Made by a program: the position numbers and the translations under genes. A DNA stretch of 64,000 bases, taken from the NCBI GenBank assembly GCA_944320015.1, contig CALUFO010000002.1:62001-126000 (forward strand), given 5' to 3'. Source of the stretch: an uncultured Barnesiella sp. (GTDB lineage Bacteria; Bacteroidota; Bacteroidia; Bacteroidales; Barnesiellaceae). Position 1 is the first letter of the stretch, and each line of letters opens with the position of its first letter. The notes beneath the pieces are model-generated. The model saw nothing but the letters and a program-made list of their open reading frames with translations. It did no database searches and had not been told where the DNA came from. Positions 12,960 through 23,401 of the stretch are shown here, piece by piece.

Positions 12960-14033
12960 TCAATGCTTCTCAATCCAATCGGCAATCCATTTGCCCACTT
13001 CGTCGGTGTGGTAGGCCTTTGCTCCGGGGTCGGCTATGTCCTCGGTTACGATACCGGCATTCATCGATTCCGAGACCGCTGTTCTGATTAGCTGAGCCTC
13101 TTCTTTCAATCCGAATGCATATTCACACATCATGGCTGCCGACAATATAGTTGCCAATGGGTTGGCGATATTTTTCCCGGCAGCTTGGGGATAGGAGCCG
13201 TGTATGGGCTCGAAAACCGAGGTGTGCACACCTATCGATGCCGATGGCAACATGCCCAACGAGCCGGTAATGACCGAGCCTTCGTCGGTGAGAATATCGC
13301 CGAACATGTTTTCGGTGACGATGATGTCAAAACTTTTGGGCCATTGTATCATGCGCATGGCCGCATTGTCGACAAATAAAAATTCGGTTTCCACTTCGGG
13401 ATATTCCGCGGCAATCTCCTGTGTGACTTCTCGCCAAAGGCGCGAGGTGGCGAGAATATTTGCCTTGTCGACCATTGTTACCTTTTTGCGTCGTTTCATG
13501 GCATATTCATAAGCGAGCTGTACAATGCGGGTAATTTCTTCACGGCTATATACACAAGTGTCGTAGGCCACATTGCCGTCTTCGCTGCGACCTTGCGGCC
13601 GACCGAAATAGAGGCCGCCGGTCAGTTCGCGGATACACATGAAATCGGCTCCGTCGATGATGTCGGAGCGAAGTGGCGATTTATGTATTAAGCCGGGAAA
13701 TGTCGTGATCGGGCGGATATTGGCAAAGAGCCCCAGTTTTTTCCGCATGGCGAGCAGCCCTTGTTCGGGGCGCACGGTCGCGTTGGGGTTGTTGTCGTAC
13801 TTGGGTGAACCTATGGCGCCAAACAGAACGGCATCGGAGCGCAGGCACAATTCGTGGGTAGAGTCGGGGTAGGGCGACCCCGTTTCTTCTATGGCGCAAG
13901 CTCCCACGGGCGCTATCTGATATTCCAGCGCATGGCCGAATTTTTTACAAACCGCTTTGGTTACATTCAATGCCTGTTCGATAACTTCCGGGCCTATTCC
14001 GTCGCCCGGTAATACTGCGATATGCAAATCCAT
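12960..14033 (-). CDS. leuB: 3-isopropylmalate dehydrogenase
   Basis: Oxidises and decarboxylates 3-isopropylmalate to 2-oxoisocaproate with NAD+, the third dedicated step of leucine synthesis. The 357-aa protein has the family signatures [14 protein letters not shown] (residues 9-22), the substrate-binding Arg run (LFANIRPI, near 103), YSREEI, the catalytic Lys in MVDKANIL near 195, and the Mg-binding Asp in [14 protein letters not shown]. It closes the five-gene leu operon, 14 bp after the second synthase. The same enzyme can process 3-methylmalate in a citramalate route, which matters because of its neighbour. Confidence 0.98.
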
Positions 14034-14047
14034 ATTATCTTTTGATT

Positions 14048-15589
14048 TTAGTTTTTTACAGTATGGTTGGTGGTTTTATCTTCTATTAAGTTGAGCATTT
14101 TGATGGTCGCTTGTATAGCCGCTTCCATTTGGTCGGCGTCCAAGCCTTGTGTTTTCAAGACACTTCCGTTATAATCCCATGAAATGACAGTTTGAACCAA
14201 CGCATCGGTGCGTCCGCCGGGCGGGATATTCACGGTATAGTTTGTCAGCAGGGGGAATGTGCGACCCAGTTGTTCTTTGTATATTTTGCGAATGGCTTTT
14301 ACAAAAGCGTCGTACTGGCCGTCGCCGGTAGAGGCGCCTTCATACACTTTCCCGTTAACCTCGATAGCGATGATGGCGACGGGTTTCAGCCCTTGTGAGA
14401 GATTGAGCGTGTAGTTTACCACTTTGACATGTTGGGCGATAGCTTGGTGCTTCAATACGTCCGAGATGATGTAAGGAAGGTCTTCGGGTGTGACAATCTC
14501 TTTTTTGTCGCTTAACTCGACAACCCGCTGGGTTACCCGTTGTATCGACTCATCGTCGAGTTCTATGCCCAACGCATCGAGATTTTTGCGAATGTTGGCG
14601 CGCCCCGAGGTTTTTCCGAGGGCGTATTCGCGTTTTCTGCCGAACCGTTCGGGCAACAGGTCGTTGTAATAAAGGTTGTTTTTATTATCACCGTCGGCGT
14701 GGACTCCGGCGCACTGAGTGAAAACCGATTCCCCGATAATAGGTTTATTGGCGGCCACTCGTACTCCCGAATAGGATTCGACGATGCGGCTCACTTTGTT
14801 GACCATATTTTCGGTTACACCGGTAGCCGCTTTCACATGGTCGTGCAAGACAGCCAAAACGCTGGTGAGCGGAGCGTTTCCGGCTCTTTCGCCCAATCCG
14901 TTTACGGTACAGTGAACGCCTTGTATCCCGGTAAGAGCCGCGGCGAAGGTGTTGGCTGTCGCTAAGTCGTAATCGTTGTGGGCGTGGAAATCGAATCTCA
15001 AATCGGGATAGCGCCGGCGCATGGCCCGGCAAAACTTCAACGTTTGGAGCGGATTCAGAATGCCCAGTGTGTCGGGGAGCATGAATCGTTCGATAGCCTC
15101 GTTTTTCAAGGCGTCCATCAATTGATATACATATTGCGGGGAATGTTGTATTCCGTTGGACCAGTCTTCGAGATAGAGGTTGATTTTCAATCCCGCGTCT
15201 CTGGCTTTCCGAACCGTTTGCTTGATATCTTCGATATGCTCCTGTATTGTTTTTTTCAGTTGAAATGTGCAATGTTTTTCCGACCCTTTACAGAGCAGAT
15301 TGATTACTTTTGCGCCGCAGGAGCGAACCCAATCGATAGAGACACCTTTATCGAGAAAGCCCAAAATCTCGATTTTATCGATATGGCCTCGTTTCTCTGC
15401 CCATTCGCATAGCTGTTTGGCCATTTCGTATTCACCGGAAGAGACCCGTGCCGAGGCTATTTCGATGCGGGGAATTTTCAAATCTTCGAGAAGTAGTCGG
15501 GCAATACTCAATTTTTCTTGCCGGGCAAACGACACCCCCGAAGTTTGCTCTCCGTCCCGCAACGTGGTATCCATAATTTCTACAAACAT
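14048..15589 (-). CDS. Second 2-isopropylmalate/citramalate synthase-family enzyme in the leu operon
   Basis: A 513-aa DRE-TIM aldolase with catalytic signature [16 protein letters not shown] at the N-terminus, metal ligands in [16 protein letters not shown] (about 205), [14 protein letters not shown] (about 235), and a C-terminal LeuA-type allosteric domain (about 385-500). It condenses acetyl-CoA with a 2-oxo acid. It is clearly different from leuA of the same operon, and its N-terminal aldolase half (e.g. [26 protein letters not shown]) resembles the CimA/LeuA2 branch. Placement between leuD and leuB suggests it feeds pyruvate into the shared leuCDB steps as citramalate synthase, giving 2-oxobutyrate for isoleucine. 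The substrate is inference; a second isopropylmalate synthase remains possible. Confidence 0.85.
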
Positions 15590-15605: not shown

Positions 15606-16196
15606 TTATTGATGTTTTTCTTCCCAATCTTCTATATCTCGCTTCTTGCTGAGCAGATAGTCGATGTCGTCATATCCGTTGAGCAAGCAGTTTTTCTTAT
15701 AGGGGTTTATTTCGAAATGTTCCGATGCACCGCTGGCATTGTCGGTAATAGTTTGGTTGGGCAGGTCGATTGTCACTGTCGATTTCGGGTCGGATTGAAT
15801 GTGGCTGAACAGGTCGGCCAAGAAAGAGTCCGAGACCACGACCGGCAACACGCCGTTGTTGAGTGCGTTGTTTTTGAAGATGTCGGCAAAGAAACTGGAT
15901 ACGACTACCCGGAGCCCATATCCGGCAATAGCCCAGGCGGCATGCTCGCGACTGGAACCGCTCCCGAAATTTTTTCCGGCTACCAAGACTGTTCCCGAAT
16001 ATTGGGGATTGTTGAGAACAAAGTCGGCGATAGGTTGTCCTGTTTTATCATAACGCCAGTCTCGGAAAAGGTTCTCGCCGAATCCTTCACGGGATACGGC
16101 TTTCAAGAAGCGAGCCGGTATGATTTGGTCGGTATCTACATTCTCTTGCGGGAGAGGGATACACGAAGATGTTATAATATCGATTTTTTGAATCAT
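15606..16196 (-). CDS. leuD: 3-isopropylmalate dehydratase small subunit
   Basis: The swivelling-domain subunit of isopropylmalate isomerase, which with LeuC converts 2- to 3-isopropylmalate. At 196 aa it has normal length. Visible motifs: [19 protein letters not shown] (about 14-32), the [17 protein letters not shown] substrate loop (about 75-91) and [28 protein letters not shown]. It lies 18 bp after leuC and 16 bp before the second synthase. Confidence 0.98.
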
Positions 16197-16214: not shown

Positions 16215-17609
16215 TTATAAAAATGTTCTGGGATCGGTTATTTCGCCTGTGATGGCTGCCGCCGCAGCGACCAACGGTCCAGCGAGTATGGTGCGGGCTC
16301 CGGGGCCTTGCCGGCCTTCGAAGTTGCGGTTTGAGGTCGATACGGCGTATTTCTCGGCGGGCACTTTGTCTTCATTCATAGCCAAGCACGCCGAACAACC
16401 GGGTTGTCGTATTTCAAAACCGGCTTCCGACAGTATGCGGTCGAGCCCTTCCGCTTTGATTTGACGGGCTACGGCTTGGGAGCCCGGTACCAGCCATGCG
16501 GTTACATGGCTATTTTTTTTGTGACCTTTAACCAAAGCGGCGAAGGCTCTGAAATCTTCGATGCGGCCGTTGGTGCAACTTCCCAAAAAGACGTAATCGA
16601 TTTTTTTGCCGAGAAGCGATTCTCCGGCCGAGAATCCCATGTAACTCAAAGCTCGGCGGAACGATATTTTCCCGCTTTCTTCTATATTATCCTCGGTGGG
16701 AATTGTTTCGTCGATAGCGATTCCCATGCCGGGGTTTGTTCCATAGGTAATGCGCGGAGCTATTTCCGAGGCGTTGAATGTCACCTCTTTGTCAAACACG
16801 GCGTCGGTGTCGCTGTACAACGTTTTCCAGTAGGCCAAGGCTTTATCCCAATTGCTCCCTTTGGGGGCAAACTCACGATCTTTCAAGTAATCGAATGTCG
16901 TTTCGTCGGGGGCAATCAGTCCGCCGCGGGCGCCCATTTCGATACTGAGGTTGCACACCGTCATTCGTTCTTCCATACTGAGAGCCCGGATAGCCTCTCC
17001 GGCGTACTCGACGAAGTAGCCTGTCGCACCGCCTGTGGTCATGCGGGATATGATGAAGAGGGCAATGTCTTTTGCCGTGACCCCGAAGGGCAACTTCCCT
17101 TCGATGTTGATGCGCATGCTTTTGGGTTTGGGTTGTAAAATACATTGTGAGGCCAATACCATGGCGACTTCGCTGGTTCCGATGCCAAATGCGATGGCGC
17201 CGAAAGCGCCGTGTGTCGAGGTGTGGCTGTCGCCGCAAACGATAGTCATGCCGGGTTGAGTTAATCCGTATTCGGGGCCGATGACGTGGATTATTCCATT
17301 TTTTTCGTCTCCCAGCCCGTAATGGGTCAGTCCGAAATCCCGGGCGTTTTTGGCCAAAGTCTCCACTTGCTTGCGCGATACCGGGTCGGCAATGGGTTTA
17401 TCTTGGTTCAGCGTGGGAATGTTGTGGTCGGGCGAGCAAGTCGTTTTCTCCGGTCGGAACACCTTCAAATTCCGTTCTCTCAATTCGTTGAACGCTTGCG
17501 GGCTGGTCACTTCGTGGCAATAGTGCTGGTCTATGTACAATTGGTCGGGGCCACCGGTAACTGATGAGACCACATGGGCATCCCATATTTTGTCAAAAAG
17601 TGTATTCAT
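16215..17609 (-). CDS. leuC: 3-isopropylmalate dehydratase large subunit
   Basis: The catalytic iron-sulfur subunit of isopropylmalate isomerase, 464 aa. The cluster cysteines are visible as a single Cys in [12 protein letters not shown] (about 350) and the pair in [11 protein letters not shown] (about 411). Other family signatures are [22 protein letters not shown] (about 128-149) and the start [12 protein letters not shown]. Aconitase-superfamily [4Fe-4S] enzymes are oxygen-sensitive, in keeping with an anaerobe. It starts 9 bp after leuA. Confidence 0.98.
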
Positions 17610-17618
17610 GAGGTTGTG

Positions 17619-19115
17619 TTATATGATAAATTTGTTGATTGCGTCGATAAAGGCTTCGGCCGAAGCTGCGACAATATCGGTATTGGCCGAGAACCCATAA
17701 TACGAAGTCCCATTGTAGAGAACGGTCATGTGCACTTTCCCGACGTCGTCGCTTCCTTTGGTAATCGCTTGTATGAGAAATTCGTTGACCACCATTTTGC
17801 GGTGTATGATGCAGCGGATAGCGTTTATCGCCGCGTCGACAGGCCCGTTACCCGAAGCGGCTGCTTCGAATTTTTCTCCGGCAATATCCAATCCTATACT
17901 TGCCACCGATTTTATTCCTACACCGGCGGTGACTTGGAGGAAATCGAGCCGTACGCGCGCATTGGCGGTGCGCTCTTTCCCTACGAGCATGAGAATATCG
18001 TCGTCGTTGATGTCTTTTTTGCGGTCGGCCAGTTTGAGGAATGCGTCATAGGCTTTGTCCAAAGCCTCTTTTTCCAGCTCGATGCCCAGCAGGTGAAGCC
18101 GGTGCTTCAAGGCAGCGCGGCCGCTTCGGGCGGTCAGTACGATAGAGTTTTCGTCGATGCCGACATCTTTGGGGTCGATGATTTCGTAGCTTTCCCGGTT
18201 CTTCAATACGCCGTCTTGGTGGATACCCGAGGAGTGGGCAAAGGCGTTACGTCCTACAATCGCTTTGTTGGGTTGCACCGGCATGTTCATCAGGTTGGAA
18301 ACCAACCGGCTTATTCCATAGATTTTTTGAGTGTTGATATTGGTCTCTATTTGTAAGTTTCGGTGGCATTTGCAAATCATGGCAATTTCTTCGAGGGCGG
18401 TGTTCCCGGCTCTTTCTCCAATGCCGTTTATGGTAACTTCGGCTTGCCGGGCTCCGTTTTGTATGCCGGCCATGGTGTTTGCCGTAGCCATTCCGAGGTC
18501 GTTGTGGCAGTGCGTGGCGATTGTTACACGGTCTATGCCGGTGACATGTTCTTTCAGGTAGAGAATCTTTTGCCCAAATTCGTAGGGGAGACAATATCCT
18601 GTGGTATCGGGGATATTGATAACTGTGGCTCCGGCTTTTATGACGGCTTCGACCACGCGGGCCAGATATTCATTATCGGTTCGCCCGGCGTCTTCGGCAT
18701 AGAATTGCACGTCTTCCACATATTTTTTTGCATACTTGACGGCGGCGACGGCTCTTTCGATAATTTCTTCTCGGGTGGAATTGAATTTGTATTTGATATG
18801 GTAGTCCGAGGTGCCTATACCGGTGTGTATGCGTTTATGCTTGGCATATTGGAGGGCTTCGGCCGCGACTTTTATATCATTTTCTACGGCGCGGGTGAGG
18901 GCGCATATCGTGGGCCATGTGACGGCTTTGGATATTTCGACGACAGACTCGAAATCGCCGGGGCTGGACACCGGGAATCCCGCTTCGATAATATCGACTC
19001 CGAGCGCTTCCAATGCTTTGGCGACTTGTATTTTTTCGACTGTGTTGAGTTGACACCCGGGAACTTGCTCGCCATCTCTTAGTGTAGTATCAAAAATAAA
19101 TAACCTGTCAGACAT
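17619..19115 (-). CDS. leuA: 2-isopropylmalate synthase
   Basis: Condenses acetyl-CoA with 2-oxoisovalerate, the first step committed to leucine. The 498-aa protein has the [17 protein letters not shown] signature (residues 8-24), metal-binding [15 protein letters not shown] (about 200), [14 protein letters not shown], and a C-terminal regulatory domain (about 365-498) that normally binds leucine for feedback inhibition. It is the first structural gene of leuA-leuC-leuD-synthase-leuB. Control has two visible layers: the feedback domain, and the leader-peptide attenuator just upstream (19141-19278). Confidence 0.98.
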
Positions 19116-19140: not shown

Positions 19141-19172
19141 AAAAAACCTTTCTCGACATTCTGTGAGAAAGG
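19141..19172 (-). terminator. Attenuator terminator of the leu operon
   Basis: A perfect 8-bp stem CCTTTCTC/GAGAAAGG (19172-19165 and 19154-19147) with a 10-nt loop and six T residues (19146-19141), lying between the leader peptide and leuA. The upstream strand TTTCTCAC (19170-19163) can instead pair with GTGAGAAA (19216-19209), which begins within the last codon and stop of the leader peptide, giving an alternative 8-bp anti-terminator. The two structures are mutually exclusive. Confidence 0.85.
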
Positions 19173-19212
19173 CTATATCTTGTCTAAGTCGTAGATTGCT
19201 CAACACTATTTC

Positions 19213-19278
19213 TCACTTCTGGTCGTATTTATTCGATAGAAGGTCAATAATTAGGTTGTTTAGCAATTCGATAGTCAT
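19213..19278 (-). CDS. leuL: leu operon leader peptide (21 aa)
   Basis: A short frame of 21 codons beginning MTIELLNNLIIDLLSN and ending KYDQK, stop TGA. Five Leu and three Ile codons make up over a third of it, clustered at residues 3-14, and no large gene overlaps it. It begins about 26 bp after the -7 promoter element and is followed by the attenuator stem. The model: a ribosome stalled at Leu (or Ile) codons leaves GTGAGAAA free to form the anti-terminator; a ribosome that reaches the stop codon covers it and lets the terminator form. The gene name is used by analogy with enteric leader peptides; no sequence similarity to them is claimed. Confidence 0.8.
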   Translation of the reverse strand: MTIELLNNLIIDLLSNKYDQK

Positions 19279-19303
19279 GGCCAAAATGGTTTTGTTTCTG
19301 ACG

Positions 19304-19334
19304 CAAAGGTAATCATTATTTTGAAAAGACAAAA
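19304..19334 (-). promoter_or_regulatory. Promoter of the leu operon
   Basis: Minus strand: -7 element TACCTTTG (19311-19304) and -33 element TTTTG (19334-19330), spaced by 18 nt. It places the transcript start about 20 nt before the leader peptide. The remainder of this gap (19335-19422) is AT-rich with nothing recognised. Confidence 0.8.
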
Positions 19335-23048: not shown

Positions 23049-23394
23049 TACAGCAGGACGGTCTGTCGCTCGCCATGCGCGGGAGGAAAGTCCGGGCAAC
23101 ACAGAGCGCCATACTTCCTAACGGGAAGCTATTCGTGAGGGTAGAGTAGCGTAACAGAGAATAACCGCTGCGCAAGCAGTAAGGGTGAAAAGGTGAGGTA
23201 AGAGCTCACCGGGCTTTACAGCAATGTAGAGTGCCGTACGTCTTATGGGTTGTAAGGTTATGTATACCGGCGTTTGTAGGGTGGCTCGCCCGATGCCGGG
23301 GGGTAAACCGCTGGAGCCTTGTGGCGACACAAGGTCGAGATAAATGACAGACACTCTTTCGAGAGTACATAACCCGGCTTACAGGCCTGCTGTA
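23049..23394 (+). ncRNA. rnpB: RNase P RNA (class A)
   Basis: The catalytic RNA of RNase P, which matures tRNA 5' ends. The near-universal core is visible: GGAGGAAAGTCCGGGCA (P4 and CR-I, around 23081) and, near the 3' end, GAGATAAATGACAGAC followed by ACATAACCCGGCTTAC (CR-V and the 3' strand of P4, from 23336). P1 closes the molecule: TACAGCAGG at 23049-23057 pairs perfectly with CCTGCTGTA at 23386-23394. The length of about 346 nt is normal for type A. The purine-rich GTAAGGGTGAAAAGGTGAGG section and the GTAAACCGCTGGAGC segment are also typical. Confidence 0.97.
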
Positions 23395-23401
23395 TTTTTT
23401 T
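23394..23401 (+). terminator. T tract ending rnpB
   Basis: A run of T after the P1 3' strand; P1 itself acts as the terminator stem. The YihY gene starts 30 bp further on. Confidence 0.6.

What the first reader, a model, noticed from the sequence alone, without database searches (positions are those of the whole stretch)
19141..19334. Complete ribosome-mediated attenuator in front of the leu operon
Directly visible: a promoter with -33/-7 elements, a 21-codon leader peptide with five Leu and three Ile codons (MTIELLNNLIIDLLSN...), and an intrinsic terminator (perfect 8-bp stem, six T). A perfect 8-bp alternative pairing is also present: GTGAGAAA (19216-19209), starting in the last codon and overlapping the leader stop, pairs with TTTCTCAC (19170-19163) in the terminator. 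The geometry fits the classical model: a ribosome finishing the peptide hides GTGAGAAA and transcription ends; one stalled at Leu codons 13-14 leaves it free. A second possible pairing joins ATTGCT..CAAC in codons 4-8 to GTTGAGCAAT (19204-19195). Such control is textbook in Proteobacteria; in this phylum it is less familiar. The Ile codons fit an operon that may also make an isoleucine precursor.
Basis: partly seen in the sequence, partly recalled or inferred. Interest (0 to 1): 0.85.

Follow-up and report, generated by a model that had tools for sequence, protein, structure and literature searches.

The report
Leucine/isoleucine-sensing attenuator before leu operon
In front of the leucine-biosynthesis genes of this gut bacterium (Barnesiella-like) lies a classical ribosome-operated on/off switch that reads leucine and isoleucine supply; it is conserved across much of the order Bacteroidales, and its isoleucine codons mostly disappear where the operon lacks its isoleucine-pathway gene.

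Summary
The window (Barnesiella-like, Bacteroidales) carries a Bacteroides-type promoter, a 21-codon uORF (5 Leu, 3 Ile), an antiterminator and an intrinsic terminator before leuA-leuC-leuD-cimA-leuB. The composite scored 24.4; none of 3000 shuffles passed 18.5. I tested it in 229 fetched leuA loci and found the same layout in most, including Bacteroides fragilis, Phocaeicola, Parabacteroides and Prevotella. CTA is 30% of uORF Leu codons against 2% in leuA. Constrained folding gives the textbook behaviour: antiterminator blocked without a ribosome, free with one stalled at any Leu or Ile codon, blocked with one at the stop. New here: at least 3 Ile codons in 49 of 50 operons with the citramalate-synthase gene but 2 of 9 without it (Fisher 8e-7; phylogenetic contrasts p about 1e-8; about five independent losses). 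This is a new member, and a widely conserved family, of a known kind. It has no Rfam entry. No expression data were available.

The parts
19304..19333 (-). Bacteroides-type promoter: -33 TTTG (19333-19330) and -7 TACCTTTG (19311-19304)
   Evidence: Sequence. TAnnTTTG lies within 75 nt upstream of the uORF in 58 of 67 non-redundant relatives against 3 of 62 in a control stretch
19213..19278 (-). Leader-peptide uORF MTIELLNNLIIDLLSNKYDQK*, control codons Leu 5, 6, 9, 13, 14 and Ile 3, 10, 11
   Evidence: Sequence; conserved frame, whole-codon indels and invariant CTA / ATT ATT / CTT CTA codons in the genus; homologous Leu/Ile uORFs across Bacteroidales
19255..19267 (-). Region 1 (5' arm of protector hairpin), ATTGCT and CAAC in uORF codons 4-8
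   Evidence: Partner-exchange covariation with region 2b z -10.5 over 67 leaders; pair counts in the genus; minimum-energy fold
19209..19216 (-). Region 2a, antiterminator 5' arm GTGAGAAA, overlapping the leader stop codon
   Evidence: Covariation with region 3 z -8.8; invariant in the genus, 92% of cells paired
19195..19204 (-). Region 2b, GTTGAGCAAT, 3' arm of the protector hairpin
19163..19170 (-). Antiterminator 3' arm TTTCTCAC, sharing TTTCTC with the terminator 5' arm (region 3)
   Evidence: Sequence
19141..19172 (-). Intrinsic terminator: stem CCTTTCTC/GAGAAAGG, 10-nt loop, six T (regions 3 and 4)
   Evidence: Sequence; covariation z -18.2; fold
17619..19115 (-). leuA, 2-isopropylmalate synthase (first regulated gene)
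   Evidence: NCBIfam TIGR00973 above cut-off
16215..17609 (-). leuC
   Evidence: TIGR00170 above cut-off
15606..16196 (-). leuD
   Evidence: TIGR00171 above cut-off
14048..15589 (-). cimA-like gene (citramalate synthase, isoleucine precursor)
   Evidence: Best model Leptospira CimA NF042433, 623 bits, below its cut-off of 950; best solved structure Leptospira citramalate synthase 3ble, E 1e-113
12960..14033 (-). leuB
   Evidence: TIGR00169 above cut-off

Best explanation
A classical ribosome-mediated transcription attenuator controls leuA-leuC-leuD-cimA-leuB, using Leu and Ile codons as sensors. (a) With no ribosome, the leader folds into a protector hairpin 1:2 (uORF codons 4-8 with the stretch just after the antiterminator arm) and the terminator 3:4, so transcription stops. 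(b) With plentiful charged Leu- and Ile-tRNA the ribosome reaches the TGA, covers the antiterminator arm GTGAGAAA, and the terminator forms. (c) When Leu or Ile is short the ribosome stalls at the Leu/Ile block, breaks 1:2, leaves GTGAGAAA free to pair with TTTCTCAC, and RNA polymerase reads on into the operon. Shown here: parts, conservation, covariation, codon bias, geometry, codon content tracking gene content. Inferred: actual termination, stalling and the response to amino acids.
For: Parts exact and beyond chance. Same layout across Bacteroidales: the scan hit 140 of 229 upstream regions; an earlier scan hit 125 of 189 with median score 25.6 against 11 of 189 with median about 15 in reverse-complement controls. 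Covariation in 67 non-redundant leaders, each arm scored against its own or other species' partner: terminator z -18.2, antiterminator z -8.8, region 1:2b z -10.5 (0/20000 each); mispaired controls R1:R3 z 0.1, R2b:R4 z 1.7, R1:R4 z -2.7. CTA is 30.4% of uORF Leu codons against 2.2% in leuA. Within the genus, indels are whole codons and CTA, ATT ATT, CTT CTA are invariant. State-specific folding of the window leader: P(antiterminator) 0.00 with no ribosome (1:2 at 0.86), 0.76-0.94 with the A site at any Leu/Ile codon, 0.00 at the stop; same trend over 67 leaders, 0.40 / 0.87 / 0.00. Ile codons follow cimA.
Against: No transcript or reporter data. At equilibrium the full-length RNA favours the terminator even with a stalled ribosome (mean P(AT) 0.14), so the model needs co-transcriptional kinetic commitment. 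Within the genus the antiterminator is invariant, so covariation for it comes only from other families. Substitutions in the genus uORFs are only mildly concentrated at third positions (106/122/145), so conservation of the peptide as such is weak, as expected for a leader peptide. Many Muribaculaceae leuA genes lack the leader.
Confidence: 0.93

Rival explanations
1. The leader is a metabolite- or tRNA-binding RNA (riboswitch or T-box), and the short frame is incidental.
For: The hairpin plus alternative pairing alone would also suit a riboswitch; leucine T-boxes exist in Firmicutes (established knowledge).
Against: No Rfam match at gathering or relaxed threshold beyond two chance hits. About 140 nt from uORF start to T-tract is short for a T-box. 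What is conserved is a frame with Leu/Ile codons at set spacing from the antiterminator, rare CTA codons, and codon identity that follows gene content.
Confidence: 0.03
2. A constitutive terminator or small-RNA gene upstream of leuA; transcription into leuA comes from read-through or another promoter, without ribosome sensing.
For: At equilibrium the terminator wins in most states; a second promoter was not excluded experimentally.
Against: Covarying antiterminator and protector stems, and Leu/Ile codons with rare-codon bias, have no reason to be kept by a plain terminator.
Confidence: 0.03
3. The mechanism is attenuation, but the Ile codons are there for base composition or RNA pairing (AT-rich ATT runs), so only leucine is sensed.
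For: ATT runs are AT-rich and lie inside the protector hairpin; one lineage (L227, G012) keeps 5 Ile codons without cimA in the operon.
Against: Ile content falls to 0-1 codons in four of about five lineages that lack cimA in the operon, while Leu stays or rises.
Confidence: 0.12

Closest known systems
leuL attenuator of the Escherichia coli / Salmonella leuABCD operon
   Same: Leu-codon leader peptide rich in rare CTA codons, protector 1:2, antiterminator 2:3, terminator 3:4, immediately before leuA (leuL details from established knowledge)
   Different: No Rfam leader model matches; leucine only in E. coli, Leu plus Ile here; a Bacteroides promoter here; operon contains cimA; antiterminator arm overlaps or closely precedes the stop codon
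Bacteroid-trp RNA (RF01692)
   Same: cis-regulatory leader in Bacteroidetes listed by Weinberg 2010 (PMC2864571); by its name a trp-operon leader
   Different: Different operon and amino acid; this genome has no RF01692 match and the leu leader does not match that model
Leader-peptide attenuation suggested in Flavobacterium psychrophilum amino-acid operons (PMC9723704) and sORFs 'reminiscent of leader peptides' in B. thetaiotaomicron (PMC7366714)
   Same: Same phylum, same proposed mechanism
   Different: Those reports, in the passages read, give no leu leader, no competing structures and no comparative test
Comparative prediction of attenuators by Vitreschak et al. 2004 (from memory; paper not held)
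   Same: As recalled, predicted branched-chain and other attenuators mainly in Proteobacteria and in some Bacteroidetes/Chlorobi
   Different: Could not be read here; whether it lists a Bacteroidales leuA leader is unknown to me
Multivalent ilv leaders (E. coli ilvGMEDA, Corynebacterium ilvBNC; established knowledge)
   Same: More than one branched-chain amino acid sensed by mixed codons
   Different: Here the mix follows the presence of a cimA gene in a leu operon

Membership tests
Ribosome-mediated transcription attenuator | Short uORF with control codons for the end product | tested here: met
   Leu 23.1% and Ile 19.1% of 1422 uORF residues in 67 leaders; frame conserved
Ribosome-mediated transcription attenuator | Intrinsic terminator between uORF and first gene | tested here: met
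   Covariation z -18.2
Ribosome-mediated transcription attenuator | Mutually exclusive antiterminator sharing the terminator 5' arm | tested here: met
   Covariation z -8.8, e.g. GGAAGTGAG/CTCACTTCC, CTGAGAATGG/CCATTCTCAG, GGAGTGAG/CTCACTCC
Ribosome-mediated transcription attenuator | Protector (1:2) pairing in the untranslated leader | tested here: met
   Covariation z -10.5; 0.86 probability in the window leader with antiterminator 0.00
Ribosome-mediated transcription attenuator | Geometry: stalled ribosome frees, terminating ribosome covers, the antiterminator arm | tested here: met
   All 67 leaders have a Leu/Ile codon that leaves the arm free; stop lies within -6 to +24 nt of the arm start in 63 of 67
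Ribosome-mediated transcription attenuator | Amino-acid-dependent read-through in cells | not testable with these tools
   No expression data held
T-box / riboswitch / known Rfam leader | Match to an Rfam model | tested here: not met
   No match at gathering; at E<=5 only two chance hits far below cut-off
Bacteroid-trp (RF01692) | Match to the model | tested here: not met
   No match at the locus or in the genome

The most novel reading that the evidence does not exclude
An old, undescribed Bacteroidales leader family in which the sensor is rewritten as operon gene content changes: Ile codons are kept where the citramalate-synthase-like gene sits in the leu operon and lost where it leaves, so the leader senses two amino acids at once and independently indicates that the LeuA-like paralogue works in isoleucine synthesis.
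Probability: 0.75. Interest if true: 0.62.

Novelty: new member of a known kind. Interest (0 to 1): 0.52.

Why it matters
It shows that translation-coupled attenuation, known best from Proteobacteria, is probably a widespread way of controlling branched-chain amino-acid synthesis in a dominant order of gut bacteria, including Bacteroides fragilis. Translation and transcription must then be close enough in these cells for a leading ribosome to matter, which is directly testable. The link between Ile codons and cimA gives an independent, genome-readable hint to the function of a gene known here only by homology. No Rfam model covers the leader.

Tried and rejected
Riboswitch/T-box/known RNA family: no Rfam match. 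Separate Ile leader in front of cimA genes that lie outside the operon: none found in 8 genomes. Same leader directly in front of leuA in other orders of the class: not found in 20 genomes, though two have a similar leader before ilvD in an ilv-leu operon. Covariation of the antiterminator within the genus alone: uninformative, the arms hardly vary. Per-leader shuffles for the region-1 pairing were weak (11 of 47 at p<0.05); the partner-exchange test was decisive. An earlier scan crashed part-way and was redone (then 25). Literature searches found no report of a Bacteroidales leu attenuator in the open-access library; subscription papers were not searchable.

Full report
What is there. On the - strand between window 19333 and 19141 lie, in order, a Bacteroides-type promoter, a 21-codon reading frame MTIELLNNLIIDLLSNKYDQK ending in TGA at 19213, and an intrinsic terminator ending in six T, 25 nt before leuA (ATG at 19115). 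The operon is leuA (17619-19115), leuC (16215-17609), leuD (15606-16196), a citramalate-synthase-like gene (14048-15589) and leuB (12960-14033). The fourth gene's closest NCBIfam model is Leptospira CimA, though below that model's curated cut-off (623 against 950 bits), and its closest solved structure is Leptospira citramalate synthase (3ble, E 1e-113). The nearest named relative is an uncultured Barnesiella (LeuA 98% identical).

Is it more than chance? A composite scan (uORF with clustered Leu/Ile, terminator, antiterminator at the right place) scores 24.4; in 3000 dinucleotide shuffles none reached 20 (maximum 18.5), and over the whole window, both strands, this is the top hit. The leader folds 3.2 standard deviations better than shuffles.

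Is it conserved? I collected 229 loci carrying leuA, nearly all from Bacteroidales (some genomes are represented twice). The scan finds a leader in 140 of them. At the 189-locus stage it found 125 with median score 25.6, against 11 of 189 with median about 15 on the reverse complements. For statistics I kept hits scoring 20 or more plus three clear homologues, and left out ten visibly doubtful ones, giving 127 loci and 67 non-redundant leaders below 75% identity. They include Bacteroides (the Bacteroides fragilis leader is MNQSFIHILLCGIIILLAKVGGSECRA), Phocaeicola, Parabacteroides, Prevotella and Tannerella. Many Muribaculaceae lack it.

Do the stems covary? I exchanged partners between species: if a stem is real, an arm should pair better with its own partner than with the homologous arm of another species. 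Windows were fixed by the uORF and the terminator, not by the antiterminator pairing, although the leaders themselves had been selected by a score that includes that pairing. Terminator z -18.2, antiterminator z -8.8, region 1 with region 2b z -10.5, none of 20000 permutations reaching any of them. Region 1:2b was not part of the selection score, so its result is the cleanest. Arms not expected to pair gave 0.1, 1.7 and -2.7. R2b with R3 gave -4.5, which I put down to 2b containing part of the antiterminator where the stop lies upstream. In the window it is the base of a hairpin that also pairs the CTT CTA codons with the start of the antiterminator arm, which is what a protector stem should do. 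Relatedness between species inflates such z-values somewhat; the mispaired controls show by about how much.

Is the frame translated? Within the genus all length changes are whole codons and the control codons are invariant, although the substitution pattern is only mildly codon-like (106/122/145 by position). Across families the uORF is 23% Leu and 19% Ile (the scan requires a Leu/Ile cluster, so this is partly by selection). CTA makes 30% of its Leu codons but 2% of those in leuA, which selection does not explain and which recalls E. coli leuL (own knowledge). The -7 element TAnnTTTG sits before the uORF in 58 of 67 cases and in 3 of 62 control stretches.

How it works. I folded the window leader with a ribosome footprint placed in turn at each position and RNA polymerase just past arm 3. 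Without a ribosome 1:2 forms (0.86) and the antiterminator does not (0.00). With the A site at any Leu or Ile codon the antiterminator forms (0.76-0.94). At the stop codon it does not (0.00). Over 67 leaders the means are 0.40, 0.87 and 0.00. This is the classical three-state attenuator. Once the full terminator is available, equilibrium favours it in most leaders even with a stalled ribosome, so the switch must act during transcription; that step is inferred.

Why isoleucine? Among non-redundant leaders with the operon in view, 49 of 50 with the cimA-like gene have at least 3 Ile codons, against 2 of 9 without it (Fisher 8e-7; Ile share 0.50 against 0.18). On a LeuA tree the gene's absence from the operon needs about five changes, and independent contrasts still link it to Ile content (r 0.66, p 1e-8). 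In G033, G016, G210 and G273 only LeuA itself answers a CimA search; the other cimA-free operons tested have it elsewhere in the genome, without a leader of its own in the 8 genomes checked. The exception is G012 (5 Ile codons, cimA elsewhere). One lineage, L072, is seen for only 7 kb downstream.

Context. The same genome has comparable leaders before ilvD (MVTMLLHVISLSVISMILVVSR, antiterminator GTGGAAAGG/CCTTTCCAC), hisG (MKALFLHHHPVCFFFTKRW) and thrA (MLHNLFYTGITTMTTP) (the last two read by eye). Prior work already points to attenuation in the phylum: Bacteroid-trp RF01692 (PMC2864571), Flavobacterium psychrophilum (PMC9723704), B. thetaiotaomicron sORFs (PMC7366714). As I recall it, Vitreschak et al. 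2004 also did, but it could not be read.

Verdict. The finding is real and the mechanism is very probably the classical one. It is a new, widely conserved member of a known kind, not a new kind. The part a specialist would most want to see is the sensor codons following the operon's gene content.

Noticed in passing
L244 (reverse strand), before ilvD of the same genome (G000:C8): An ilv leader, MVTMLLHVISLSVISMILVVSR (Val, Leu and Ile codons), with antiterminator GTGGAAAGG/CCTTTCCAC and terminator CCTTTCCACACCACGGAAAGG.
   Followed up: partly
L245, before hisG of the same genome (G000:C6): A his leader MKALFLHHHPVCFFFTKRW with three consecutive His codons and a terminator AAAGGCTTACCGTCGGTGCGGTAGGCCTTTTTT; read by eye.
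   Followed up: no
L246 (reverse strand), before thrA of the same genome (G000:C4): A thr leader MLHNLFYTGITTMTTP in which the last Thr/Pro codons themselves seem to form the 5' arm of a terminator (ACCACCCCTTAGGGGGGAGG, then a T-run), a possible direct-occlusion design without a separate antiterminator.
   Followed up: no
L248 and L249, before ilvD in other orders of the class: Short Leu/Ile leaders (MNGKVFLLSIIILLEF, MYPLVILLSFIILIGFTK) with 10-12-bp antiterminators before ilvD-ilvB...leuA-leuC operons.
   Followed up: partly
L034-L040, L043, L045-L048 and similar: Muribaculaceae and relatives mostly lack the leader although several keep cimA in the leu operon; how they regulate it is unknown.
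   Followed up: no
L078: Tannerella-like leader MLRYQLHSIVVVTYFLLLGREGK has three Val codons where relatives have Ile; the contig ends too early to see the operon.
   Followed up: no
uORF C-terminal ends across families: Two classes of stop: TGA formed inside the antiterminator GTGAG (Barnesiella, Parabacteroides), or a stop codon about 18 nt after its start (Bacteroides ...GSECRA); both keep the arm under a terminating ribosome.
   Followed up: partly
window 23050-23397 +: Bacterial RNase P RNA class A.
   Followed up: no
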